From positions 1,674,001 through 1,738,000 of the forward strand of contig NZ_QYUQ01000002.1 of the NCBI RefSeq assembly GCF_003590835.1: DNA of 64,000 nt, written 5' to 3'. The notes beneath the pieces were generated by a model that did no database searches, was not told the DNA's origin, and worked only from the letters and a program-made list of their open reading frames with translations. Numbering within the stretch: position 1 is the first letter of the stretch; the number at the start of each line of letters is the position of its first letter. Positions 1 through 64,000 of the stretch are shown here, piece by piece. The translations under genes and the position numbers were made by a program. This stretch comes from Noviherbaspirillum sedimenti (GTDB taxonomy: Bacteria > Pseudomonadota > Gammaproteobacteria > Burkholderiales > Burkholderiaceae_D).

Positions 1-414
1 CGAAAGTTTGTCGAGCACGCGGTCGAGCACTTCACGGCAATAGGTTTTCATGGCGCCGGCACCCGGCAAATCGAGCGACCAGCGCGCATCGTGCGCCACC
101 GTATTGGAGTCGAACCAGTCGTCGCCACGGTTCAGCAAGGAGGCACGCTGCGCGGCAGCGGGATGGCTCGACTGCGCCTCACGCAGAATGTACCATTCGG
201 CAAACCAGGCCACATGGCCCAATTCCCACAGCGGCGGATTGACGATGGTCAGGCGCGGCACCCGGGCCGGCGCGTCCAATCCTGCCTCAAGGAAATAATC
301 GAACAGGGCCAGCGTATAATCGCGCGCATCCCGCAATGCGCGCGCCAGTTCGGGCGGCGAAGCCTGGCGGAAAGAAACGTCGGCGGATGGTGCGGACGGT
401 GCGGATGGTTCCAT
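1..414 (-). CDS. senA: Selenoneine synthase SenA, N-terminal part (cut by window edge)
   Basis: Reverse translation from the ATG at 414 gives 138 codons open to the window edge. Residues 25-80 are a DinB-type four-helix bundle. The motif PLWELGHVAWFAEW (about 61-74) carries the first iron-ligand His (H67) expected in EgtB-like sulfoxide/selenoneine synthases. In the known pathway SenA joins hercynine to a selenosugar using a non-heme iron centre. The gene diverges by 20 bp from senB, which lies next to a selD homologue, and that context separates it from an ordinary EgtB. The second iron motif (HxxxHxE) and the FGE-sulfatase domain lie outside the window. It could be another EgtB-family enzyme, but the context favours SenA. 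Confidence 0.82.
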   Translation of the reverse strand, partial: MEPSAPSAPSADVSFRQASPPELARALRDARDYTLALFDYFLEAGLDAPARVPRLTIVNPPLWELGHVAWFAEWYILREAQSSHPAAAQRASLLNRGDDWFDSNTVAHDARWSLDLPGAGAMKTYCREVLDRVLDKLS

Positions 415-434
415 TTATACGGGAAGCGACAAAG

Positions 435-1445
435 GTGAAACCGCATATTGTCATGATCAGCCCGGCGCTGGCAAATGCCAACAACGGCAACTGGCAAACC
501 GCCAGCCGCTGGGCGCGCATGCTGCGTCACCATTATGCAGTCACGATCGTGGCCAGCGGCGCGGCGCCGGCAAGCGATGCCGCGCGCTGCCCCGACCTCG
601 TGATCGCCCTGCATGCGCGCCGCTCCGCCGCCGCGCTGCAGACCCTGGGCGCAAGTTGCCCGCAGACCCCGGTAATGCTGGTATTGACCGGCACCGACCT
701 GTATCGCGACATCCACACCGATGCCGCCGCGCGCCAGGTCCTGCAACGCGCCGACCGGCTGGTGATATTGCAACAGGCCGGCCTGCAGGAACTCGCGCCC
801 GCGCTACGCACCAAGGCGCACGTCATTCACCAGTCCGCCCCCATGCTCAAAGCCATCGGCGCAGATGTGAAAAACCGCATGCGCCACTTCGATGTCTGCA
901 TGGTCGGCCACCTGCGCATTGAAAAGGACCCGGCCACCTTCATGCGCGCAGCCGCCCTGCTCGCTCCGCCGCGCATCCGCCTGCTGCATATCGGCGGCGC
1001 GCTCGATGCGGCATTGGCGACCCAGGCGCAGGCAACAGCACAAGCGCAGGCCAATTACCGCTGGCTCGGCGCATTGCCGCACGCCGACACCCGCCGTCGC
1101 CTGAAACACTGTCACCTGATGGTGATCGCCTCGCACATGGAGGGCGGCGCGAATGTCATCATCGAAGCCTTGACCTCGGGCGTACCGGTGCTGGCTTCCG
1201 ACATTTCCGGCAACCGCGGCATGCTCGGCGACGACTATGCCGGCTACTTCCCGCCGGGCGACAGCGCCGCGCTGGCGCAAGCCATCGAGCGCGCCGCCCG
1301 CGACCCCGCCTTTTACGCGCGACTTGAGCAGCAGTGCCAGGTGCGGGCGCCGCTGTTTGCACCGGAGCGTGAACAAACGGCCTTGCTGGACTTGGTGGAT
1401 AATATGCTGCATAGCAAGGACACACACAGGAACCCCTCCCCATGA
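435..1445 (+). CDS. senB: Selenosugar synthase SenB (GT4-type glycosyltransferase)
   Basis: This is a 336-residue protein if the GTG at 435 is the start. GGGAAG lies 8 bp upstream, and the residues after it (KPHIVMISPAL) are the first beta strand of a GT-B fold. An upstream ATG at 336 would overlap senA and is unlikely. Near residue 244 the segment EGGANVIIEALTSGVPVLAS is the nucleotide-sugar-binding motif of GT4 enzymes. In characterised sen clusters this family uses UDP-sugar and selenophosphate to make a selenosugar for SenA. It overlaps senC by ATGA, so the two are translationally coupled. The function is inferred from family and neighbours. Confidence 0.85.
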   Translation: MKPHIVMISPALANANNGNWQTASRWARMLRHHYAVTIVASGAAPASDAARCPDLVIALHARRSAAALQTLGASCPQTPVMLVLTGTDLYRDIHTDAAARQVLQRADRLVILQQAGLQELAPALRTKAHVIHQSAPMLKAIGADVKNRMRHFDVCMVGHLRIEKDPATFMRAAALLAPPRIRLLHIGGALDAALATQAQATAQAQANYRWLGALPHADTRRRLKHCHLMVIASHMEGGANVIIEALTSGVPVLASDISGNRGMLGDDYAGYFPPGDSAALAQAIERAARDPAFYARLEQQCQVRAPLFAPEREQTALLDLVDNMLHSKDTHRNPSP

Positions 1446-2500
1446 ACGCACCCATCGAACCCGGCATCCGGCTCACTTCGTTTTCCCATGGCGGCGGCTG
1501 CGGCTGCAAGATTGCCCCCGGCATCCTGGCGGAAATCCTGAAAAAGTCCAGCGGCTTTCCGGTTCCCAAGGAATTGTTGGTCGGCATCGAGACCGCCGAT
1601 GACGCCGCCGTCTACAAGCTCAATGACGAGCAGGCGCTGATTGCCACCACCGATTTCTTCATGCCCATCGTCGACGATCCCTTCGACTTCGGCCGCATCG
1701 CCGCCACCAATGCCATCTCCGATGTCTATGCCATGGGCGGCACGCCGATCATGGCGCTGGCGCTGGTGGCCATGCCGGTCAACCAGTTGCCCATCGAAGT
1801 GATCGGCAAGATCATCCAGGGCGGTGAGGCTGCCTGCGCCGAAGCCGGCATCCCGATTGCCGGCGGCCACACCATCGACTCGGTCGAGCCGATCTACGGC
1901 CTGGTGGTGATGGGCATCGTGCATCCTGCGAAAATCAAGCGCAACGCCGACGCCCGCGCCGGCGACAAGCTCATCCTCGGCAAGCCGCTGGGCGTGGGCA
2001 TCCTGTCGGCGGCACTGAAGAAAAATGCCCTCGACGCCGACGGCTATGCCGCCATGATCGCCAATACCACCAAGCTCAACAAGCCGGGCCGCGCATTGTC
2101 CGAACTGGATGGCGTGCATGCCCTGACCGATGTCACCGGCTTCGGTCTGCTCGGCCACACGCTGGAAGTGGCACGCGGCGCCGGCCTCACCGCACGCATC
2201 GAGATGCCAGCCGTCCCGCTGTTGCCGGGCGTGGCGCAACTGGCGGAAAACGGTTTCATCACCGGGGCCTCCGGCCGCAACTGGGCCGGCTATGGCCAGG
2301 ACGTCCGCCTGGGAAGCGAGATCGGTCCGGTGCAGCAAGCCTTGCTGACCGATCCCCAGACTTCCGGCGGCCTGCTGGTGTCGTGCGCCGCCGATGCCGT
2401 GGAGCAAGTACTGGAAATTTTCCGGCGTGAAGGTTTCGCCGATGCCGCCGTGATCGGCGAGATGGCCGCAGGTCCGGCCAGCGTCGTCGTCAGCGCATGA
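1442..2500 (+). CDS. senC: Selenophosphate synthase (SenC/SelD)
   Basis: This is a 352-residue SelD homologue of normal length. It makes selenophosphate from selenide and ATP. The glycine-rich N-terminus reads SHGGGCGCK. C20 and K23 match the catalytic Cys17 and Lys20 of E. coli SelD, and there is no in-frame UGA, so it is a Cys form. ISTTDFFMPIVD-like (TTDFFMPIVDDPFDFGRIAA) and DVTGFGLLGH segments are conserved. The start overlaps the senB stop (ATGA). No selA, selB or selU lies nearby, so I infer that its main role here is to feed SenB. It could also serve selenoprotein or seleno-tRNA synthesis elsewhere in the genome. Confidence 0.92.
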   Translation: MNAPIEPGIRLTSFSHGGGCGCKIAPGILAEILKKSSGFPVPKELLVGIETADDAAVYKLNDEQALIATTDFFMPIVDDPFDFGRIAATNAISDVYAMGGTPIMALALVAMPVNQLPIEVIGKIIQGGEAACAEAGIPIAGGHTIDSVEPIYGLVVMGIVHPAKIKRNADARAGDKLILGKPLGVGILSAALKKNALDADGYAAMIANTTKLNKPGRALSELDGVHALTDVTGFGLLGHTLEVARGAGLTARIEMPAVPLLPGVAQLAENGFITGASGRNWAGYGQDVRLGSEIGPVQQALLTDPQTSGGLLVSCAADAVEQVLEIFRREGFADAAVIGEMAAGPASVVVSA

Positions 2501-54862: not shown

Positions 54863-55217
54863 GTAATTCTCCAAGTGAGTGAAACACGCTCCAAGTTGCA
54901 TGAAGCGTGCCAGAAAGCAAAATCACTTGAAATGTTTTTTATAAAACCTTGTTATATCTGAGTTATTTTTCTTATTGTATTTAATGAAGACGCCTCATCC
55001 AGCAGAAAGAATGACAAACAGAAAACAAATCTTGCATACAATTTCACCGAAATAGGATGCAGTTGAGGGATTGCGCACCAAATCAGGCGCCTGACTGCAT
55101 ACAAGATCCGAATGCCACCCATCTACCAAAGCACCAGCGAGGTGCGAAAGCCGGTCTATTTATCGGCATGAATATTGCTGGAATTCCTGCATATTCGTTC
55201 TTCAGAAAGGATGTGCA
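54863..55217. other. AT-rich control region
   Basis: About 350 bp with no credible gene. It is AT-rich at 54930-55010 and likely holds the promoter of the eight-gene importer operon on the minus strand. Confidence 0.5.
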
Positions 55218-55403
55218 ATGGATACTGCAACCACCTTCAAGACAATAAAGCCGGCAGATATCCCGATTACGCCAGCACGAACGGAAATTGGGTACCATGC
55301 CGCCTCGCAATGCGTCTCCTTGCACTGTCCGCTGCATGTCTGGGTCTGCGACCTGAACGGCGACCTGGTATTCGCCACCAATCGCCCCGCCGTGACGGCC
55401 TAG
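55218..55403 (+). CDS. Small ORF, unknown
   Basis: This is a 61-residue ORF with AAGGA 7-8 bp before the ATG. Its second half uses high-GC third positions like real genes, and it contains CVSLHCPLHVWVCD, with three cysteines and two histidines that could bind metal. Its stop shares a CTAG with the convergent GST gene. No family recognised. Confidence 0.45.
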   Translation: MDTATTFKTIKPADIPITPARTEIGYHAASQCVSLHCPLHVWVCDLNGDLVFATNRPAVTA

Positions 55404-56116
55404 GGCTGCAGTTCCGGGTAGTGGCGGAATATTCCCTCTTCTGAAAATGGCAGGCGCCGCGCCGACGCCAGGTAGGCCGCGATGCGCGGACGCTGCGCCA
55501 CGCGATCGTGCAGATCGACCAGCAACGGCCATCCCGACTCCCTTTTTGCCATCGCATGCGGAAAAGCGTAGCGCATGCCCTCGACCACCTGGAACATCGA
55601 CAGGTCGGCATACGACAGCCGGGCGCCGACCATGAAGCGGCTGCCGCGCGGATTATGTGCCAGCACCTGCTCGAAGTAATCCAGGTACTTGGGCAGCCGG
55701 ACTGCGGTGAAATCGGCTGCACGGATTTTCGCCGCCTTCTTCTGCTCTTCGTAATACAGGTTGACCGACAGCGGATGATGGGTGTCGTGCACTTCCGTGA
55801 CGAGGTCGGCGACGGTCAGCTGCAACTGGTGCGTCCACAGCCGCCCTGCCTCGGCTTTCGGCGCCAGGCCGAGCGCAGTGCCGAGAAACAGCAGGATGTT
55901 GGCGGTCTGGCCGATCAGCAGGTCGCCTGCCTTCAGGAATGGCGGCGCAAACGAAAACCGGCCCGACGCGCCGGGCTCCAGCAGCCGCATCATGGCCGCC
56001 GTCCCGCCATCCTGGCGCGCCACGTCGACATAATCGGCGCCAGCCTCTTCCAGCACCAGGCGCACGAATTCACCGCGCCCCTGGATCCCCGGCCAATAAT
56101 ACAGTTCGTAAATCAT
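55400..56116 (-). CDS. Glutathione S-transferase-like protein
   Basis: This 238-residue protein starts at 56116 (MIYELYYWPGIQGRGEFVRL), 10 bp after egtB. The thioredoxin-like N-domain with a Tyr near residue 7 fits alpha/mu/pi- or sigma-type GSTs. The helical C-domain has SYADLSMFQVVEGM. It is third in the egtD-egtB operon, so it may act on thiol or thione stress products. That role is inferred from context only. Confidence 0.85.
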   Translation of the reverse strand: MIYELYYWPGIQGRGEFVRLVLEEAGADYVDVARQDGGTAAMMRLLEPGASGRFSFAPPFLKAGDLLIGQTANILLFLGTALGLAPKAEAGRLWTHQLQLTVADLVTEVHDTHHPLSVNLYYEEQKKAAKIRAADFTAVRLPKYLDYFEQVLAHNPRGSRFMVGARLSYADLSMFQVVEGMRYAFPHAMAKRESGWPLLVDLHDRVAQRPRIAAYLASARRLPFSEEGIFRHYPELQP

Positions 56117-56126
56117 TTTACGGCGA

Positions 56127-57404
56127 TCATGAACGCGCCAGGCGGATGCCGGAAAACTGCCAGCGTGCTGTGGCGGGAAAGAAATTGCGGTAAGTCGCGC
56201 GGGCATGGCCGGCCGGGGTGGCGCAGGATGAGCCGCGCAGCACGTACTGGTTGACCATGAATTTGCCGTTGTATTCGCCGAGCGCCCCGGCGGACGGCGC
56301 ATAGCCGGGATACGGCGCGTAGCTGCTGGCAGTCCATTGCCAGCAGGCGCCGAACATCTGCGCCAATCCTTCCTGGCGCGCCGCCTGCGGATGCATGGCT
56401 TCGTGCGCCAGTTCGTGGCGACCGCTGGCGGCGACTTCCCACTCGGTTTCCGTCGGCAGCCGCGCTCCCGCCCAGCGCGCATAGGCATCGGCCTCGAAAT
56501 AGGAAAGGTGACTGACCGGCGCGTGCAATTCCAGCGGCAGCAAGCCATGCAGGGTGAACTCCTGCCAGCCATCCTGCGCCGGCCGCTCCGCGTTCTCCCC
56601 GGGCGCATGCCAGTACAGTGGCGCCGACAAGCGGCTCGCCTGCACCCAATCCCAGCCTTCCGACAACCACAAGGCCGGCGTGGCATAGCCGCCGCCAATC
56701 ACGAAAGCCAGGTATTCGCCATTGCTGACCAGCCGCGACGCCAGCTGGAAAGGCTCGACGAACTGGCGATGACGCGGCAGTTCATTATCGAAGCAAAAGC
56801 CGTTGCCGGCATGGCCGATCTCGACGACATCGGCTTCGTAGGCCAGCCAGTCCAGCGGCAAGGTCTGGCGTGCTTCAGGCCCAGGCTGGCTGGCGTAAGC
56901 CGGCTTCAGCGGGTTTTGCGCCAGCAGGTGCTTGACGTCGGTGAGCATCAGTTCCTGGTGCTGCTGCTCGTGGTGCAGGCCCAGTTCCACCAGTGGCAGC
57001 ATGTCCTTCGCCGCACTCGCGTCGGACAGCAATGCCAGCATGCGGGCGTCGACATTGCGGCGATAGTCGAATACCGCCGACAAGGGCGGACGCGTCAGCA
57101 GGCCACGCTGCGAACGCGGATAGCGGGCGCCGACGTCGTTATAATAGGAATTGAACAGCACGCGAAATTGCGGCTGGAACGGGTGGAAGTTCCGCTCGAA
57201 GCGCTCCAGGATGAAGGTCTCGAAAAACCAGGTGGTATGCGCCAGGTGCCATTTGACAGGACTGGCGTCCGCCATCGACTGCGCGCAGCAATCCTCTTCC
57301 GAGAGCGGCTCGCACAGCATCATCGAGCGCGCCCGCACGCTGAAGTAATGCTGCGACAGGGCTTCGACCCCTTGCAGGAAATGCGCCTCGGCGTGCGTGT
57401 TCAT
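56127..57404 (-). CDS. egtB: Ergothioneine synthase-type EgtB
   Basis: This 425-residue protein starts at 57404, with AAGGAAG upstream and 23 bp after egtD. The N-terminal DinB domain has H56 (WHLAHTTWFFETF) and the iron motif H145-x3-H149-x-E151 (HHEQQHQELM). The C-terminal FGE-sulfatase domain is complete. It forms the C-S bond between hercynine and a thiol with oxygen. egtA, egtC and egtE are absent nearby, which suggests direct use of cysteine and a lyase encoded elsewhere. Confidence 0.93.
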   Translation of the reverse strand: MNTHAEAHFLQGVEALSQHYFSVRARSMMLCEPLSEEDCCAQSMADASPVKWHLAHTTWFFETFILERFERNFHPFQPQFRVLFNSYYNDVGARYPRSQRGLLTRPPLSAVFDYRRNVDARMLALLSDASAAKDMLPLVELGLHHEQQHQELMLTDVKHLLAQNPLKPAYASQPGPEARQTLPLDWLAYEADVVEIGHAGNGFCFDNELPRHRQFVEPFQLASRLVSNGEYLAFVIGGGYATPALWLSEGWDWVQASRLSAPLYWHAPGENAERPAQDGWQEFTLHGLLPLELHAPVSHLSYFEADAYARWAGARLPTETEWEVAASGRHELAHEAMHPQAARQEGLAQMFGACWQWTASSYAPYPGYAPSAGALGEYNGKFMVNQYVLRGSSCATPAGHARATYRNFFPATARWQFSGIRLARS

Positions 57405-57427
57405 GGCGACATCGCTTCCTTCACCTG

Positions 57428-58423
57428 TCAATGCGGCGCGCGCGCATGGCACACCATGAACCAGCCGCGCGCGTCGGTCCAGGCGCGCGGCTGGACGAAG
57501 CCGGCCTCTTCCAGAAGTTGCAGGAAGCCCTCGCGCGTGTACTTGTAACTATTCTCGGTATGGATGCGTTCGCCTTCGGCGAAGCGGCGGCGCGCGCCCG
57601 GCCAGCCCACGCTGACGTCGCGGCGCGCCTCCAGATGCATTTCGACGCGGCTGGCATCCGGATTGAAATAGCCGAGATGGCGCCAGTCGCGCACATCGAA
57701 GTCAGCGCCGAGCAAGACATTCAGGTGCTGCAACAGGTTCAGGTTGAAGGCGGCGGTCACGCCCAGGGCATCGTCGTAGGCGGCATCCAGCAGCCGCTTG
57801 TCCTTGACCAGGTCGACGCCGATCAGCAAGCCGCCGCCCGCGCCCTTTTCCGCCCCATCGCTGCAGGCTGCGCGAACGCGGCGCAGGAAGGCCAGTGCCT
57901 GGTCGGGCGCATCGTTGCCGATCGAGGAGCCGGGGTAAAAGATCAGGCGCCGCGTGCGGCCGACCGCTTCGGGCAAGTCCAGCGCGCTGGAAAAATCCAG
58001 GCCGATGCTGGTGACGGCAAGTTGTGGATGGCGCTGCTTGAGCTGCGCCACCGCCTCGCGCAGAAAATCGACCGAGATATCTACCGGTACATACTGGCGC
58101 GGCGCCAGCGCATCGAACAGCCTGGCGGCCTTGGCGCAGTTGCCGGCGCCGAGATCGATCAGGGTCACGCCGGTGCCGATGGCCGCGGCCATGGCGGGCA
58201 GGTGCCGCGCAAAAATTTCCGTTTCAGTGCGGGTCGGGTAATATTCCGGCAATTCGCAAATCGCCTCGAACAGTTTTGATCCGAGCGGGTCGTAGAGGAA
58301 TTTGGGCGCAACGGTCGCATTCGTGGCAAGCAAGCCCGCCACCAGCTCGGCGCGAATGGCGGTGTCATCCCGATGAAAAGCCTGGATGAATCCGTCCGGC
58401 AAATGTTCAGCGGGTCTCGACAT
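57428..58423 (-). CDS. egtD: Histidine N-alpha-methyltransferase EgtD
   Basis: This is a 331-residue SAM-dependent enzyme. FLYDPLGSKLFEAICELPEY (about 40-59) is the EgtD signature and LIDLGAGNCAKA the SAM site. FYPGSSIGND is also conserved. It trimethylates histidine to hercynine, the common precursor of ergothioneine and selenoneine. It is first in the minus-strand operon. Confidence 0.95.
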   Translation of the reverse strand: MSRPAEHLPDGFIQAFHRDDTAIRAELVAGLLATNATVAPKFLYDPLGSKLFEAICELPEYYPTRTETEIFARHLPAMAAAIGTGVTLIDLGAGNCAKAARLFDALAPRQYVPVDISVDFLREAVAQLKQRHPQLAVTSIGLDFSSALDLPEAVGRTRRLIFYPGSSIGNDAPDQALAFLRRVRAACSDGAEKGAGGGLLIGVDLVKDKRLLDAAYDDALGVTAAFNLNLLQHLNVLLGADFDVRDWRHLGYFNPDASRVEMHLEARRDVSVGWPGARRRFAEGERIHTENSYKYTREGFLQLLEEAGFVQPRAWTDARGWFMVCHARAPH

Positions 58424-58587
58424 GGCGTTCGATCCGGTTGATGCTGCATGAAAAGCTGATCTGCCCGCAGCAATACATGATTATTTTGGCTATCATAGCG
58501 GATTATCCCACCCCCCGGTTGAGACCAGACAAAGGCTACCCGCCCTTTGCTCGACGACTTTCCAATAACCTTACAAGAAAGCTTACC
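58424..58587. promoter_or_regulatory. Shared control region of egtD and the PhnD-like importer
   Basis: A 164-bp divergent spacer. GCTATCATAGC (58489-58499) is a perfect dyad whose centre offers a TATCAT/TATGAT -10-like hexamer in both directions. No clear -35 is seen. A common regulator for both operons is possible. Confidence 0.45.
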
Positions 58588-59466
58588 ATGCTCAAGCGCG
58601 TTGCTTCTCCCTGCAAAAAAATGGTGTTGACCCTGGTGCTGGCTGTCGGCGCCGCCGCCTCCGGCAGCCTTGCGTATGCACAACAAGTCCTGCGCGTATC
58701 TGCCATCCCCGACGAGGCGCCGACCGAACTGCAGCGCAAGTTCAAGCCGCTAGGCGAATACCTGGAACAGAAGACCGGCCTGAAAGTCGAATTCACTCCG
58801 GTCACCGACTATGCCGCATCGGTGGAAGGCTTGCTGAACAATAAGCTGGATATGGTCTGGTTCGGCGGCTTCACCTTCGTGCAAGCCAATGTCCGCAGCA
58901 AGGGCCAGGTGATCCCGATCGTGCAGCGCGAGGAAGACGAGAAATTCAAGTCGGTGTTCATCACCACCCACAAGGACATCAACAAGCTGGAAGACCTGAA
59001 GGGCAAGACCTTCTCCTTCGGCTCCGAGTCGTCGACCTCCGGCCACCTGATGCCGCGCTCCTTCCTGCTGGGCGCAAAGGTCAATCCGGACACCGACATG
59101 AAGCGCATCGCCTTCTCGGGCGCGCATGACGCCACCGTGGCGGCGGTTAGCGGCGGCAAGGTCGATGCCGGCGCCCTGAACATCTCGGTGTGGGAAAAGC
59201 TGGTTTCGCAAGGCAAGGTCGATCCGAAGGAAGTGCGCGTGTTCTACACCACACCCGGCTATTACGACTACAACTGGACGGTGCGCGCCGACATGAACCC
59301 GGCGCTGCGCAAGAAGCTCACCGATGCCTTCCTGGCGCTGAACAAGGACACCGCGCAAGGCAAGGAAATCCTCGAACTGCAACGCGCCACCCGTTTCATC
59401 CCGACCAAGCCCGAGAACTACAAGGCGATCGAGGATGCAGCGAAGAACGCCGGCCTGTTGAAGTAA
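58588..59466 (+). CDS. Putative selenate-type ABC importer binding protein (PhnD family)
   Basis: This is a 292-residue protein. The signal peptide runs to about LAYAQ (residue 31). It belongs to the PhnD phosphonate-binding family. SAIPDEAPTELQRKFKPLG, WFGGFTFVQA and FGSESSTSGHLMPRSF resemble the clade annotated as putative selenate-binding (TIGR04553), which I recall as defined by nearness to selenium genes. The ligand has not been shown. Phosphonate, phosphite or another oxyanion are alternatives. It is the first gene of a binding protein-ATPase-two-permease set. Confidence 0.82.
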   Translation: MLKRVASPCKKMVLTLVLAVGAAASGSLAYAQQVLRVSAIPDEAPTELQRKFKPLGEYLEQKTGLKVEFTPVTDYAASVEGLLNNKLDMVWFGGFTFVQANVRSKGQVIPIVQREEDEKFKSVFITTHKDINKLEDLKGKTFSFGSESSTSGHLMPRSFLLGAKVNPDTDMKRIAFSGAHDATVAAVSGGKVDAGALNISVWEKLVSQGKVDPKEVRVFYTTPGYYDYNWTVRADMNPALRKKLTDAFLALNKDTAQGKEILELQRATRFIPTKPENYKAIEDAAKNAGLLK

Positions 59467-59508
59467 GCGGTATTGGCCAGGGCGAACGGTGCGACTGACG
59501 AAAACATC

Positions 59509-60333
59509 ATGGTTTTTTCATTGAACCAGCTGTCGGTGCGCCATCACGGCGCCGGCGGTGCCGCGTACGCCCTGCGCGAACTGACCCTCACGGTCGCGGC
59601 CGGCGAACAGGTCGCCCTGATCGGTCCGTCCGGCGCCGGCAAGACCACCCTGCTGCACACCCTGGCCTGCGCCCATCGCCCGGATAGCGGCACGCTTGAA
59701 GTGTTTGGCGTCTCGCCCTGGGCGCTGTCCGATGCCCAGCGCCATGCGTTGCGGCGCCGTTTGTTCCTGGCGCCGCAGACGCCGCCGCTGCCACCGCGCC
59801 AGCGCGTCGTCACGGCGGTGCTGGCCGGCCGTCTGCCGCAATGGAGCCTGGCGCACGCCATCGTCTCGCTGTTCAAGCCAGCCGATCCGCAACTGGCCTT
59901 CGAGGCGCTGGCGCACTTTCATCTGCAGGACAAACTGTATTCCCGCGTCGACCGCCTGTCCGGCGGCGAACGCCAGCGCTGCGGCATGGCCCGGCTGCTG
60001 GTTTCCGGCGCCGAGGCGCTGCTGGTCGACGAACCCCTGTCGGCGCTCGACCCGACACTGGCGCTGCAGACGCTCGCCGTGCTGCAACAGGAAGCGCAAT
60101 CCCGCAAGGCCGCCATGATCTGCAGCCTGCACCAGGTCGAACTGGCCCGGCAGCACTTCCCGCGCATCATAGGCCTGCGCGATGGCCGTATCGTCTTCGA
60201 CGCCGCCCGCGAGGATGTCACCGACGCCATGATCGCCGCGCTGTATCGCCATGCGACCACGCCGCTGCATGCCGCCGACGAAGCGGAAAACGGCAGCCTG
60301 CAGCAGGCGCCCACCATCACGCGCTGCTTCTGA
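59509..60333 (+). CDS. PhnC-like ABC ATPase
   Basis: This 274-residue ATPase starts at 59509 (MVFSLNQLSV); a TTG at 59473 would add 12 residues. Walker A GPSGAGKTT, signature LSGGERQRCGMA, Walker B LLVDEPLSALD. It drives the importer formed with the binding protein upstream and the two permeases downstream. Its stop overlaps the next start as TGATG. Confidence 0.9.
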   Translation: MVFSLNQLSVRHHGAGGAAYALRELTLTVAAGEQVALIGPSGAGKTTLLHTLACAHRPDSGTLEVFGVSPWALSDAQRHALRRRLFLAPQTPPLPPRQRVVTAVLAGRLPQWSLAHAIVSLFKPADPQLAFEALAHFHLQDKLYSRVDRLSGGERQRCGMARLLVSGAEALLVDEPLSALDPTLALQTLAVLQQEAQSRKAAMICSLHQVELARQHFPRIIGLRDGRIVFDAAREDVTDAMIAALYRHATTPLHAADEAENGSLQQAPTITRCF

Positions 60334-61166
60334 TGCCATCCGCCGCGCCCAATCAGTACGCCGATCCCGCCTGGCGCATTCGCGTGGCCGGCCTGGCGAT
60401 CGGCATCGCCCTGCTGTGGCCGCTGCTGGTGGCGAGCGAATTCAAGCCCTGGATCCTGTTCGACGCGCAAAGCCTGCGGGCGACCGGGCGCTTCCTGGCT
60501 GATTTCTTCCCGCCGGCGCACTCTGCCGAATTCCTCGCCATGGTAGTCACGGCGACCTGGGAAACCATCGCCATGGCGACCGCCGGCCTGACCCTGGCGA
60601 TCGTCGGCGCGATCCCGCTGACCCTGGTGGTCAACGAACAATTATCCATTTCCCGTATCGGCGGCGGCCGCATGCGCCTGCCGGCGCAGCTGGCGCGGCA
60701 AGCCGCGCGCTGGCTGCTGGTGGGCCTGCGCAGCGTGCCCGAACTGGTGTGGGCGCTGCTGTTCGTGCGCATTGTCGGCCTCGGCCCGACCGCCGGCGTG
60801 CTGGCGATCGCACTGACCTATTGCGGCATGCTCGGCAAGGTGTACGCCGAAATTCTCGACTCGGCCGACGCCCATGCGACGCAGGCGCTGTTGCGAGCCG
60901 GCAGTTCGCGCCTGTCGGCGCTGCTTTACGGCACCCTGCCGCAAGCCGCATCGGAACTGGTTTCCTACACGGTATACCGCTGGGAATGCGCGATCCGTGG
61001 CTCGATCATCATGGGCTTCGTCGGCGCCGGCGGGCTCGGACAAAGGATGGATGAATCCATGAAAATGCTGGCAGGCGGCGAAGTGGCGAGCATGCTGCTG
61101 GTCTTCATCCTGCTGGTGGGCTGCGCCGACGGCGCCAGCCGGCTGTTGCGACGGCGGCTGGGATGA
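60333..61166 (+). CDS. PhnE-like ABC permease 1
   Basis: This 277-residue permease has its ATG overlapping the ATPase stop by one base. About six helices; LRSVPELVWALLFVRIVGLG and GTLPQAASELVSYTVYRWE are PhnE-type signatures, the second holding the ATPase-coupling loop. It is not a product of the longer reading frame that begins inside the ATPase gene. Confidence 0.9.
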   Translation: MPSAAPNQYADPAWRIRVAGLAIGIALLWPLLVASEFKPWILFDAQSLRATGRFLADFFPPAHSAEFLAMVVTATWETIAMATAGLTLAIVGAIPLTLVVNEQLSISRIGGGRMRLPAQLARQAARWLLVGLRSVPELVWALLFVRIVGLGPTAGVLAIALTYCGMLGKVYAEILDSADAHATQALLRAGSSRLSALLYGTLPQAASELVSYTVYRWECAIRGSIIMGFVGAGGLGQRMDESMKMLAGGEVASMLLVFILLVGCADGASRLLRRRLG

Positions 61167-61969
61167 GCGGCGACGCCCTCAAGCTGGTAGCACCGGCGCC
61201 GCCGCCGCGCGACTGGCCGATCCTGTTGCTGCTGGCGGCAATCCTGCTGATGGTCATTGCCAGCTTCGCCACCCTGCCGCTGAAATGGGGCGAGTTGTTC
61301 AGCGCCGGGGCCTTGCAATCCACCCTGGAATTCCTGCGCGGCTTCGCGCCGCCGGAACTGGCGCCGGCATTCCTGCGCAAGGTCGCCGGCGCCACCCTGG
61401 AGACGCTGGCGATGTCGGCGCTGGGCACCCTGCTGGCGGCAATCGCGGGGCTGGCGCTGGCGCTGCCGGCGGCCGGCCGCTTCGGCGCCGCGCCGCGCGC
61501 AGCCACCCGCATGCTGCTCAATGTCCTGCGCTCGGTGCCGGAACTGGTGTGGGCCTCGATCCTGCTGATCGCCGCCGGCCTCGGACCCTTCGGCGGCACC
61601 ATGGCGCTGGCCGCGCACACCGCTGGCGTCTTGGGGCGGCTGTTCGCCGACGCCATGGAGAACCTGCCGCCGCAGCCGGAAGCAACGCTGCGCATCAACG
61701 GCGTCACGCCGGCGGCGGCCTTCCTGTACGCGACCCTGCCGCAAGCGCTGCCGCAGATCATGTCGTACACCCTCTACCGCTGGGAAAACAATATCCGCGC
61801 CGCCGCCGTGCTGGGCGTGGTCGGCGCCGGCGGTCTCGGCCAGATGCTGAAATACCACCTGTCGCTGTTCCAGATGCAGCAAGCCGCCACGGTCATCATC
61901 GCCATGCTGCTGCTGGTGGCGGCAGTCGACGCGGCAAGCTTCGCGCTGCGCCGCGGCATGACCCGCTAG
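61163..61969 (+). CDS. PhnE-like ABC permease 2
   Basis: This is a 268-residue permease that overlaps permease 1 by ATGA. It repeats the same signatures (LRSVPELVWASILLIAAGLG, TLPQALPQIMSYTLYRWE), so the two are paralogues that probably form a heterodimer. It completes the importer. Confidence 0.9.
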   Translation: MSGDALKLVAPAPPPRDWPILLLLAAILLMVIASFATLPLKWGELFSAGALQSTLEFLRGFAPPELAPAFLRKVAGATLETLAMSALGTLLAAIAGLALALPAAGRFGAAPRAATRMLLNVLRSVPELVWASILLIAAGLGPFGGTMALAAHTAGVLGRLFADAMENLPPQPEATLRINGVTPAAAFLYATLPQALPQIMSYTLYRWENNIRAAAVLGVVGAGGLGQMLKYHLSLFQMQQAATVIIAMLLLVAAVDAASFALRRGMTR

Positions 61970-61979
61970 CAGGGGCGCC

Positions 61980-62627
61980 ATGCTGGAACTGCGCCACCTC
62001 AGCAAGGCTTACGCGAACGGACGCCAGGTGTTGTCCGACCTGTCCTGGCGCCTGGCGCCCGGCGAATACGTCGCCATCATGGGCGAATCCGGCGTCGGCA
62101 AGTCGACCTTGCTGAATATCATCGCCGGCCTGGATACGCCGGACTCAGGCGATGTCGTGGTCGATGGCGTGGCGATTTCCACGCTGGACGACGATGCCAC
62201 GACCCGTCTGCGCCGCGAAAAATTCGGCTTCATCTTCCAGGCTTTCCACATCCTGCCGCACCTGAACCTGCTGCAGAACATCGCCCTGCCGCTGCTGTTG
62301 AACGGCATGCCGCAGGCGCGCGCCGCGCAGATGCTGGCAGCAGTCGGCCTGGACGGGCGCGGCGCGGATTTCCCGCGCCAGCTGTCGGGCGGCGAATTGC
62401 AGCGCGTGGCGATCGCCCGCGCACTGGTGCACCAGCCCCGGCTCATCCTCGCGGATGAGCCGACCGGCAATCTCGACCCGGAGACTGCGCACGGCATCCA
62501 GCAATTGCTGCGCGCCGAAATCAAGGCCAACCAGGCCAGCGCCATCCTGGTCACCCATTCGCCGGCGGCGGCTGCCAGCGCCGACCGCGTGCTGGTGCTG
62601 AGCCGGGACGGCTTGCGCCCGGCCTGA
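61980..62627 (+). CDS. LolD/MacB-like ABC ATPase
   Basis: This is a 215-residue ATPase with Walker A GESGVGKST, signature LSGGELQRVAIA and Walker B LILADEPTGNLD. The KFGFIFQAFHILPHLN Q-loop is typical of the MacB/LolD group. It works with the FtsX-type permease downstream. It follows the importer by 10 bp in the same direction but belongs to a different ABC class. Confidence 0.9.
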   Translation: MLELRHLSKAYANGRQVLSDLSWRLAPGEYVAIMGESGVGKSTLLNIIAGLDTPDSGDVVVDGVAISTLDDDATTRLRREKFGFIFQAFHILPHLNLLQNIALPLLLNGMPQARAAQMLAAVGLDGRGADFPRQLSGGELQRVAIARALVHQPRLILADEPTGNLDPETAHGIQQLLRAEIKANQASAILVTHSPAAAASADRVLVLSRDGLRPA

Positions 62628-62628
62628 C

Positions 62629-64000
62629 ATGCCAACGCCAGCGCGCACTACCTCCCTGCGACGCTTGCTGCACTGGCTGCTGGCCGGCGAATGGCGCGCC
62701 CATCCGCTGCGCAGCGGTATCGCCATCCTTGCCATCGCCGTCGGCGTGGCGCTCGGCTTTGCCATCCATCTGATCAACAGCGCCGCCCTCAATGAATTCT
62801 CGGCCGCGGTGCAAACCCTGTCCGGCCAGGCCGACCTGCAGGTGCGCGGCACACAAAGCTGGTTCGACGAAACGCTCTATCCGCCGCTGGCAGAGCATCC
62901 CTCGGTGGCGCTGGCCAGTCCGGTTCTGGAGGTCGACGCGGCCCTGCCCGGCCAGACCAGACCGCTGAAAATCATCGGCATCGACGTCTTTCGCGCGGCG
63001 GCAATCACTCCCGAACTGGTCGGCACCGTGCTCGAAGACAATCGTACCGACACCCTGGCCGACGACGCCATCTTCCTGTCGCCGGCGGCGCTGCAATGGC
63101 TGCAGCGCCAGCCTGGCCAGCAGCTGCAGCTGCGCGCCGGCACCGGTACGGTAAGCTTGCGCATCGCCGGCACCCTGACTGGCGCGCGTCCCGGCCAGCG
63201 CCTTGCCGTCATGGACATCGGCGCGCTGCAATGGCGCCTGCACCACCTCGGGCAGTTGTCGCGCATCGACCTGAAACTGCGGGACGGCGTGCCGCGTGCG
63301 GCCTTGCAACGGCAACTGGCGCAGCAGCTGCAGGGCCGCGCGCTCGTCGGCGAACCGCAAGAACAGCAAACGCGCATCGCCAGCATGTCGCGCGCCTACC
63401 GCGTCAACCTCAACGTGCTGGCGCTGGTGGCCCTGTTTACCGGCGCCTTCCTGGTGTTTTCCAGCCAGGCGCAGGCCGTCATCCGCCGCCGCAGCCAGCT
63501 GGCGCTGCTGCGTGTGCTCGGCATGACGCGCCGCCAATTACTGCTGCAACTGCTGGCCGAAGGCGCCCTGCTCGGCACCGCAGGCGCCCTGCTGGGACTG
63601 GCAGGCGGCCACGCGGCCGCTGCCGCCGCCCTGCATTTTTTCGGTGGCGACCTCGGCGGCGGCTACTTTCCCGGCGTGCAGCCGAGCGTGCAATTCGCGC
63701 CCGGCGCCGCCCTGGTGTTTTTCCTGCTCGGCACCGGCGTCGCCGTGCTCGGCAGCGCCGCCCCGGCATGGGAAGCGGCCCGCGCGCAGCCCGCGCAAGC
63801 CTTGAAACCCGGCAGCGAGGAAAGCGCCCTGTCGAGGCTGGCGACGCCATGGCCGGCGCTGGCCTGCCTTCTGCTGGGGGCGCTATTCACCCGCCTGCCG
63901 CCGCTGGCCGGCTTGCCGGTATTCGGCTACCTGGCGGTGGCGTTGCTGCTGGTCGGCGGCATTGCACTGATGCCGCGCCTGGCGGCGCTGGCCTTCGGCG
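62629..64000 (+). CDS. FtsX-type ABC permease (cut by window edge)
   Basis: The frame is open from the ATG at 62629 to the window end, 457 codons so far. A first helix (about 28-48) is followed by a MacB-type periplasmic domain and then FtsX core helices from about 260 (LNVLALVALFTGAFLVFSS). RRRSQLALLRVLGMTRRQL is a conserved FtsX loop. It is probably an exporter or mechanotransmission system with the ATPase upstream. Substrate unknown. Confidence 0.85.
   Translation, partial: MPTPARTTSLRRLLHWLLAGEWRAHPLRSGIAILAIAVGVALGFAIHLINSAALNEFSAAVQTLSGQADLQVRGTQSWFDETLYPPLAEHPSVALASPVLEVDAALPGQTRPLKIIGIDVFRAAAITPELVGTVLEDNRTDTLADDAIFLSPAALQWLQRQPGQQLQLRAGTGTVSLRIAGTLTGARPGQRLAVMDIGALQWRLHHLGQLSRIDLKLRDGVPRAALQRQLAQQLQGRALVGEPQEQQTRIASMSRAYRVNLNVLALVALFTGAFLVFSSQAQAVIRRRSQLALLRVLGMTRRQLLLQLLAEGALLGTAGALLGLAGGHAAAAAALHFFGGDLGGGYFPGVQPSVQFAPGAALVFFLLGTGVAVLGSAAPAWEAARAQPAQALKPGSEESALSRLATPWPALACLLLGALFTRLPPLAGLPVFGYLAVALLLVGGIALMPRLAALAFG

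What the first reader, a model, noticed from the sequence alone, without database searches (positions are those of the whole stretch)
55400..61969. Ergothioneine operon back to back with a putative selenium-oxyanion importer, 55 kb from senABC
egtD gives hercynine, the substrate of both EgtB and SenA. The divergent PhnD-like importer resembles a clade named putative selenate-binding. The window thus holds an acceptor-making enzyme, both C-S and C-Se bond-forming enzymes, selenophosphate synthase and a possible selenium uptake system. I infer one sulfur/selenium antioxidant network, with the importer as its selenium source.
Basis: inference. Interest (0 to 1): 0.8.

Follow-up and report, generated by a model that had tools for sequence, protein, structure and literature searches.

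The report
Probable selenium importer for selenoneine synthesis
A PhnD-type nutrient importer beside the ergothioneine genes belongs to a family that, in many bacteria, sits next to genes that build selenium compounds; it is therefore a strong candidate for a dedicated bacterial selenium importer, but what it carries has not been measured.

Summary
egtB-egtD face a four-gene PhnD-type ABC importer, 53-56 kb from senABC (senA is cut by the window start). The binding protein scores 406 bits on NCBIfam TIGR04553, 'putative selenate' (cut-off 250). In 41 of 80 related loci a selenium gene (selD, senA, senB or mnmH) lies within 10 kb (about 1.4 expected); in 7, senA is next upstream and co-directional. 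Related PhnD proteins below the cut-off: 1 of 20. In 200 genomes of the order, importer and SenA co-occur in 24 (9.9 expected). PhnJ is absent here and found in 8 of 76 importer genomes. New point: the crystallised marine cyanobacterial PhnD1 (7s6g) is a TIGR04553 member, identical at all 11 published pocket positions; it prefers phosphite, and its paper's main text never mentions selenium. I infer hydrogen-selenite, not selenate, as ligand. Binding is untested. A 2026 review says no specific high-affinity selenium transporter is known in prokaryotes, so the candidate is directly testable.

The parts
55400..56116 (-). glutathione S-transferase-like gene, last of the egtD-egtB-GST string
   Evidence: Pfam GST_C_3 109 bits; found in 1 of 80 related loci by tblastn, so not a conserved part
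56127..57404 (-). egtB, ergothioneine sulfoxide synthase (ORF can be read from GTG 57452; ATG at 57404)
   Evidence: TIGR03440 564.5 bits over cut-off 360; SenA model 382.9, below its cut-off 420
57428..58423 (-). egtD, histidine N-methyltransferase making hercynine; only EgtD match in the genome
   Evidence: TIGR03438 367.8 bits, cut-off 290.9; one match in G000
58489..58499 (.). perfect palindrome GCTATCATAGC between egtD and the importer; candidate shared divergent promoter (symmetrical -10) or operator
   Evidence: 1 in window, 0.02 expected; 10 copies of GCTATNATAGC in 1.485 Mb of 80 loci, 9 of them upstream of the binding protein, i.e. in 9 of the 36 loci with a divergent egtD and 0 of 44 without; one other copy in the genome, inside an integrase ORF
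58588..59466 (+). substrate-binding protein of the importer (TIGR04553, 'putative selenate'); pocket residues D42, Y75, T96, S148, S149, T150, S151, H180, N198, D227, Y228
59509..60333 (+). PhnC-like ATPase (ORF from TTG 59473; ATG at 59509)
   Evidence: TIGR02315 182.9 bits, below cut-off 266.1; a match in 77 of 80 loci
60333..61166 (+). PhnE-like permease A, start overlaps the ATPase stop
   Evidence: TIGR01097 191.1 bits, below cut-off 216.7
61163..61969 (+). PhnE-like permease B, start overlaps the permease A stop
   Evidence: TIGR01097 237.6 bits over cut-off 216.7
61980..62627 (+). LolD/MacB-like ATPase 10 bp downstream; perhaps co-transcribed, not part of the claim
   Evidence: LolD model 205.3, below cut-off 307.75; a match in 22 of 80 loci, directly downstream of the permeases in 18
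1..414 (-). 5' part of senA, selenoneine synthase; continues outside the window
   Evidence: NF041186 523.9 bits, cut-off 420
405..1445 (+). senB, selenosugar synthase (ORF 336-1445; start probably 405 or 435)
   Evidence: TIGR04348 413.9 bits from residue 38 of the ORF, cut-off 300
1442..2500 (+). senC/selD, selenophosphate synthase, only SelD match in the genome
   Evidence: TIGR00476 434.8 bits; one match in G000

Best explanation
The four-gene operon encodes an ABC importer that brings a selenium oxyanion, most likely hydrogen-selenite, into the cell for SelD/SenC. SenC makes selenophosphate, SenB the selenosugar, and SenA joins selenium to the hercynine made by the neighbouring EgtD, giving selenoneine; EgtB uses the same hercynine for ergothioneine, and MnmH draws on the same selenophosphate. 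Shown here: the genes, the family, the pocket identity with a crystallised relative, and the gene-neighbour and genome-wide association with selenium genes. Inferred: selenium as ligand; selenite over selenate (the pocket holds three oxygens and has an aspartate, D227, described in the relative as a hydrogen-bond acceptor: HSeO3- can give such a bond, SeO4 2- and SO4 2- cannot); common control of egtD and importer from the shared 164-bp gap.
For: Neighbourhoods: of the 80 best-matching loci (up to 10 kb each side), 41 have selD, senA, senB or mnmH (chance about 1.4); selD 39, egtD 36, senB 23, senA 21, mnmH 6. Layouts include senC-senB / senA / egtD | importer (6, plus 2 with egtB), senC-senB / senA-importer co-directional (7), mnmH-selD-importer (5). 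Wider sampling: 12 of 32 genomes from phylum and class draws against 1 of 20 loci of related PhnD proteins below the cut-off (Fisher 0.008); this includes members only 34-35% alike (L177-L179, L202-L204). Genome level: in 200 genomes of the order, importer 45, SenA 44, both 24 (9.9 expected, Fisher 8e-8); within the 143 SelD genomes SenA in 23 of 40 with importer against 19 of 103 without (9e-6); within the 84 EgtD genomes still 0.004; importer genomes with SelD 40 of 45 against 103 of 155 (0.002). Outside that set 29 of 31 importer genomes have SelD. PhnJ absent from G000 and present in 8 of 76 importer genomes.
Against: No ligand data. Measured members (PhnD1) bind phosphite at 0.05-4.3 uM and phosphate at 7-182 uM, and in a cocktail screen only phosphorus conditions stabilised them. 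26 of 80 loci have no selenium or egt gene within reach, and none of 8 further order-level loci has a selenium gene (seven of these were picked knowing that 1.5 kb held none). In the order set, of 24 genomes with importer and SenA, 5 have both on one contig and only 2 within 15 kb; three, this genome included, are 51-59 kb apart. Among the 101 SelD genomes without SenA the importer-EgtD link is not significant (EgtD in 9 of 17 with importer against 26 of 84 without, 0.07). 5 of 45 order genomes and 2 of 31 others have the importer but no SelD match. D227 is not invariant: D in 34 of 40 wider family members, N in 6. Fisher tests ignore relatedness; the 24 genomes fall in 14 families (labels). 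The 8 of 49 SelD rate in importer-free genomes is mostly from other classes and is a poor baseline. Sulfite would also fit a three-oxygen pocket.
Confidence: 0.73

Rival explanations
1. The importer takes up phosphite or phosphate (or small phosphonates) as a phosphorus source, and its place near selenium genes is a by-product of genome organisation.
For: All 11 published pocket residues of Synechococcus PhnD1 are identical here, and that protein binds phosphite and phosphate. Nearest solved structures by sequence and fold are phosphite/phosphonate proteins.
Against: 41 of 80 loci beside selenium genes in several unlike layouts; PhnJ absent from G000 and in 8 of 76 importer genomes; the PhnD1 authors found no growth of two strains on phosphite or methylphosphonate and call that affinity fortuitous (abstract). 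PtxD was not searched for.
Confidence: 0.15
2. The importer takes up a sulfur oxyanion such as sulfite or thiosulfate, for ergothioneine.
For: egtD lies immediately divergent in 36 of 80 loci.
Against: The importer sits with selD and mnmH and no egt gene in reach in Janthinobacterium and on the Sphaerotilus plasmid, and with senA, senB and selD without egt genes in 7 loci. EgtB takes sulfur from a thiol, not an oxyanion (recalled).
Confidence: 0.06
3. The adjacency of egtBD and the importer in this window is accidental.
For: 26 of 80 loci have the importer without egt or selenium genes nearby.
Against: egtD lies immediately divergent (<900 bp) in 36 of 80 loci, and in 9 of these an otherwise rare 11-bp palindrome is kept in the gap.
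Confidence: 0.06

Closest known systems
[quoted passage not shown]
   Same: 406.1 bits against a cut-off of 250; selenium gene neighbourhood in relatives
   Different: The model is of the kind 'hypoth_equivalog' with a putative name; the pocket points to a protonated three-oxygen anion (selenite), not selenate (inference)
PhnD1 of marine Synechococcus and Prochlorococcus (PDB 7s6g, 5lq5, 5lq8)
   Different: Described as a phosphorus transporter; its genomic selenium context was not examined here
PtxB / E. coli PhnD / HtxB / ArrX / AioX (phosphite, phosphonate, hypophosphite, arsenate, arsenite binders)
   Same: Same fold; PtxB shares the STS and His of the pocket
   Different: PtxB lacks the W-F-G-G motif, S148 and D227; the PhnD model score 171.4 is below its cut-off 261.1
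senABC selenoneine pathway of Variovorax paradoxus
   Same: SenA, SenB, SenC all over their cut-offs
   Different: Here senA is divergent from senBC and the importer is 56 kb away; what I saw of three papers (passages, the whole short text) describes no selenium transporter

Membership tests
TIGR04553 putative selenium-oxyanion binding protein | score over the curated cut-off of 250 bits | tested here: met
   406.1 bits
TIGR04553 putative selenium-oxyanion binding protein | association with selenium genes | tested here: met
   41 of 80 loci; 24 genomes with SenA against 9.9 expected
TIGR04553 putative selenium-oxyanion binding protein | binds selenate or selenite | not testable with these tools
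   needs purified protein
cyanobacterial PhnD1 | published pocket residues D11 Y44 T65 S123 S124 T125 S126 H156 N174 D203 Y204 | tested here: met
   all identical in the window protein and in 80 of 80 named relatives; in 40 wider members Y44, S124-T125-S126 and H156 are invariant, the others vary
cyanobacterial PhnD1 | binds phosphite more tightly than phosphate | not testable with these tools
   published for PhnD1 only
phosphonate-specific PhnD (TIGR03431) | score over cut-off 261.1 | tested here: not met
   171.4 bits
phosphonate-specific PhnD (TIGR03431) | C-P lyase (PhnJ) in the genome | tested here: not met
   none in G000; 8 of 76 importer genomes
phosphite uptake (Ptx) system | phosphite dehydrogenase PtxD in the genome | not tested
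   no genome search left; the PtxB pocket differs at W91, G94, T96, S148, N198, D227
selenoneine pathway | SenA, SenB, SenC and a hercynine source | tested here: met

The most novel reading that the evidence does not exclude
TIGR04553 importers, including PhnDCE1, whose binding protein is reported in all picocyanobacterial strains (PMC8786288, passage) and is described as a phosphate transporter, are high-affinity selenite importers: a dedicated selenium uptake system of prokaryotes, found alike in selenoneine-making Burkholderiales and in the most abundant photosynthetic cells of the ocean. The measured phosphite affinity would be mimicry of selenite.
Probability: 0.33. Interest if true: 0.87.

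Novelty: new variant of a known kind. Interest (0 to 1): 0.7.

Why it matters
Two reviews, one of May 2026, state that no specific high-affinity selenium transporter has been identified in prokaryotes (passages of PMC13188914, and PMC9312934). This gives a named four-gene candidate, its likely ion, the residue that should set the choice (D227), and lineages where it is one block with the selenoneine genes. It also shows that a crystallised 'phosphorus' protein is of the same family, so the first test needs only selenite and an existing protein.

Tried and rejected
Hercynine or ergothioneine import: rejected, since the pocket is a conserved small-oxyanion pocket and the importer also sits with selD/mnmH without egt genes. 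Phosphonate use by C-P lyase: PhnJ absent. Clustering the ORFs of 108 loci to find further conserved neighbours was useless, as shadow frames and ABC proteins merged. A motif shared between the egtD-importer gaps (37) and the senA-senB gaps (18): none. The palindrome as a genome-wide regulon: one other copy only, inside an integrase ORF. Rfam on 55000-63000: nothing. A sigma-70 consensus scan of the gap: nothing. tRNAs in the window: none. Six records of the plasmid collection were looked at: Sphaerotilus has selenium neighbours; four Rhodobacterales plasmids show none annotated within 8 kb; the Aeromonas record has no annotation there. SelD or sen genes in picocyanobacteria could not be checked with the tools left; the novel case rests on family identity and pocket alone. 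Searches for print on a selenium role of such importers: 'putative selenate ABC transporter' 1 paper (passages, an annotation), TIGR04553 0, selenoneine + ABC transporter + senA + selenate 1, selenoneine with gene cluster, transporter, SelD 1, selenoneine + ABC transporter 9 (listing, two of them read in passages), PhnD + selenite 2 (listing), selenium uptake with ABC and SelD terms 18, 15 listed (listing, two read in passages), PhnD1 + selenium 0. The original selenoneine paper (Nature 2022) was not read; only accounts of it were seen, so it may show such neighbours.
Full report
What is there. The window is G000:C2:1674001-1738000 of a 5.04 Mb genome. The nearest named proteins to its binding protein are from Janthinobacterium sp. 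17J80-10 (93%) and an Oxalobacteraceae MAG (91%). On the minus strand lie egtD (57428-58423), egtB (56127-57404) and a GST gene (55400-56116). Facing them, after a 164-bp gap, lie a binding protein (58588-59466), a PhnC-like ATPase (59509-60333) and two PhnE-like permeases (60333-61166, 61163-61969) with overlapping or near ends. SenB and SenC are at ~405-2500; SenA is divergent from them and straddles the window start. One EgtD and one SelD match exist in the genome; MnmH is at C2:1178769.

Family. [quoted passage not shown] The name is NCBI's and is marked putative; in the library of open papers the phrase appears in one paper, as an annotation, and the accession in none.

Neighbourhoods. 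I fetched the best 80 named loci of the clade (63-91% identical) with up to 10 kb on each side and searched them with the window's own genes plus MnmH and SelD of Sphaerotilus. 41 of 80 hold selD, senA, senB or mnmH; about 1.4 would be expected for four randomly placed genes in a 4.5 Mb genome. The layouts differ: senC-senB, senA, egtD, importer (6, plus 2 with egtB after it); senC-senB, then senA and importer in one direction without egtD (7); senA, senB-senC, egtB-egtD, importer (3: Pseudoduganella, Duganella and an Oxalobacteraceae MAG); mnmH-selD-importer (5: four Janthinobacterium and an Oxalobacteraceae MAG). NCBIfam confirmed SenA in three of these loci (L061, L070, L075) and SenB and the binding protein in L070. 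A Sphaerotilus plasmid has mnmH, ATPase, permease, binding protein and selD in a row. Against: 26 of 80 loci have no selenium or egt gene in reach.

Wider sample. The best-80 set is close to the window, so I drew genomes from the whole class and phylum. TIGR04553 is over its cut-off in 9 of 219 and 31 of 378 genomes. I took stretches of up to 9 kb each side for 25 of the 31 phylum and 7 of the 9 class genomes (32 different genomes): 12 of 32 have a selenium gene there. Of those left out, G000 is the window, G162 is already in the 25, G107 is in the 7, G310 and G350 had none (in the eight below), and G293 and G388 have selD next to the importer within 1.5 kb. Eight further order-level loci have none; seven of them were picked knowing that their nearest 1.5 kb held none, the eighth (G307) unseen. 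As a control I took 20 loci of related PhnD proteins below the cut-off (18 of the 21 listed class loci, one from the order set, and the paralogue in this genome): 1 of 20 has a selenium gene, and that one (L231) is itself a phnC-phnD-phnE-selD-mnmH row, perhaps a second selenium-linked branch. Members only 34-35% identical to the window protein (L177-L179, L202-L204) stand next to senA, senB or a divergent SelD; SenA and the binding protein of L202 and SenB of L177 were confirmed by NCBIfam. So the link is not confined to close relatives.

Whole genomes. In the same 200 genomes of the order the counts over cut-off are: importer 45, SenA 44, SelD 143, EgtD 84. Importer and SenA occur together in 24 (9.9 expected, Fisher 8e-8); within the 143 SelD genomes in 23 (9e-6); within the 84 EgtD genomes the link is weaker (0.004). 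Importer and SelD occur together in 40 of 45 (0.002), importer and EgtD in 35 (18.9 expected, 4e-8); but among SelD genomes without SenA the importer-EgtD link is not significant (0.07). Close linkage is not universal in this set: of 24 genomes with importer and SenA, 5 have both on one contig, two within 15 kb and three (this genome included) at 51-59 kb; of 40 with importer and SelD, 13 have both on one contig and 9 within 15 kb. These tests ignore relatedness; the 24 genomes fall in 14 families by the labels. Outside the order set, 29 of 31 importer genomes have SelD, 27 of 27 among those in the window's class; the 49 importer-free genomes in that call gave 8, but 45 of them belong to other classes, so I do not lean on that contrast. 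PhnJ, the mark of phosphonate use by C-P lyase, is absent from this genome and found in 8 of 76 importer genomes.

The pocket. By sequence and by fold the nearest solved protein is PhnD1 of Synechococcus MITS9220, PDB 7s6g (model mean pLDDT 88.3). [quoted passage not shown] All 11 pocket residues named in the paper are identical in the window protein and in 80 of 80 named relatives; in 40 wider members Y75, S149-T150-S151 and H180 are invariant, while D227 is D in 34 and N in 6, T96 is T in 25 and S in 15, and S148 is S in 22. I read the abstract, passages and sections 6, 7 and 14 of that paper (PMC10284923). PhnD1 proteins bind phosphite at 0.05-4.3 uM, phosphate at 7-182 uM and, where bound, methylphosphonate at 17-109 uM; hypophosphite is not bound, which the authors read as a need for three oxygens; two strains could not grow on phosphite or methylphosphonate; the authors call the phosphite affinity fortuitous and propose a phosphate transporter. 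The main text contains no word beginning 'selen'. A first screen of cocktails with metals and C, N, S and P sources gave shifts only with phosphorus; its list is in a supplement that I did not see. [quoted passage not shown]

Mechanism. Selenite is a three-oxygen pyramid like phosphite. D227 (D203 in PhnD1) is described as a hydrogen-bond acceptor, so the bound anion should carry a proton. Near neutral pH selenite is largely HSeO3-, while selenate and sulfate carry none (pKa values recalled). I therefore predict selenite, not selenate, and exclusion of sulfate. This is inference. Once inside, selenite would be reduced by cellular thiols to selenide for SelD/SenC (recalled chemistry).

Regulation. 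The 11-bp palindrome GCTATNATAGC sits once in the window, at 58489-58499 in the egtD-importer gap (0.02 expected). Among the 80 loci there are 10 copies in 1.485 Mb; 9 lie upstream of the binding protein, in 9 of the 36 loci with a divergent egtD and 0 of the 44 others, and the tenth lies just upstream of permease A in L043, where about 4 kb separates ATPase and permease. Its core can be read as a -10 box on both strands, so the simplest reading is a symmetrical divergent promoter; no consensus -35 was found. It is not a genome-wide motif, and most loci with a divergent egtD lack the exact form.

Verdict. What is new is the strength and variety of the link to selenoneine genes, and that the family includes PhnD1, a protein already crystallised and assayed as a phosphorus binder. 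What is missing is a binding measurement with selenium. A May 2026 review still says that no specific high-affinity selenium transporter is known in prokaryotes, which makes this worth testing.

Noticed in passing
L231 8317-12923 (G179): A PhnD-type importer below the TIGR04553 cut-off (149 bits) is followed on the same strand by selD and mnmH: possibly a second selenium-linked PhnD branch.
   Followed up: partly
order-level SelD matches: SelD matches in 13 genomes of the order carry one in-frame TGA, as expected for SelD proteins that contain selenocysteine.
   Followed up: no
L043 10793-16606: The importer operon is split by about 4 kb between ATPase and permease, and a second copy of the gap palindrome lies just upstream of permease A.
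   Followed up: no
L199 6946-10042 (G664): Two tandem TIGR04553-type binding proteins next to selD, in a genome outside the window's class.
   Followed up: no
window 61980-64000 and L005 1-3354: Directly downstream of the importer: LolD-like ATPase, a large FtsX/MacB-like permease and a protein that looks like the AttH/carotenoid hydratase family (recalled, not scanned). The ATPase is directly downstream in 18 of 80 relatives; the permease matched in 2 of 80.
   Followed up: partly
L057, L061, L201-L204: SelD near several sen clusters is a divergent form; in G752, G126, G154 and G218 its open frame is 762-776 aa, so probably an oxidoreductase-SelD fusion.
   Followed up: partly
NZ_AP026896.1 4736804-4753589 (L010): A 4.9 Mb record filed as an Aeromonas caviae plasmid with 18 annotated features; looks like a chromosome, and carries a 63.5% identical binding protein.
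   Followed up: no
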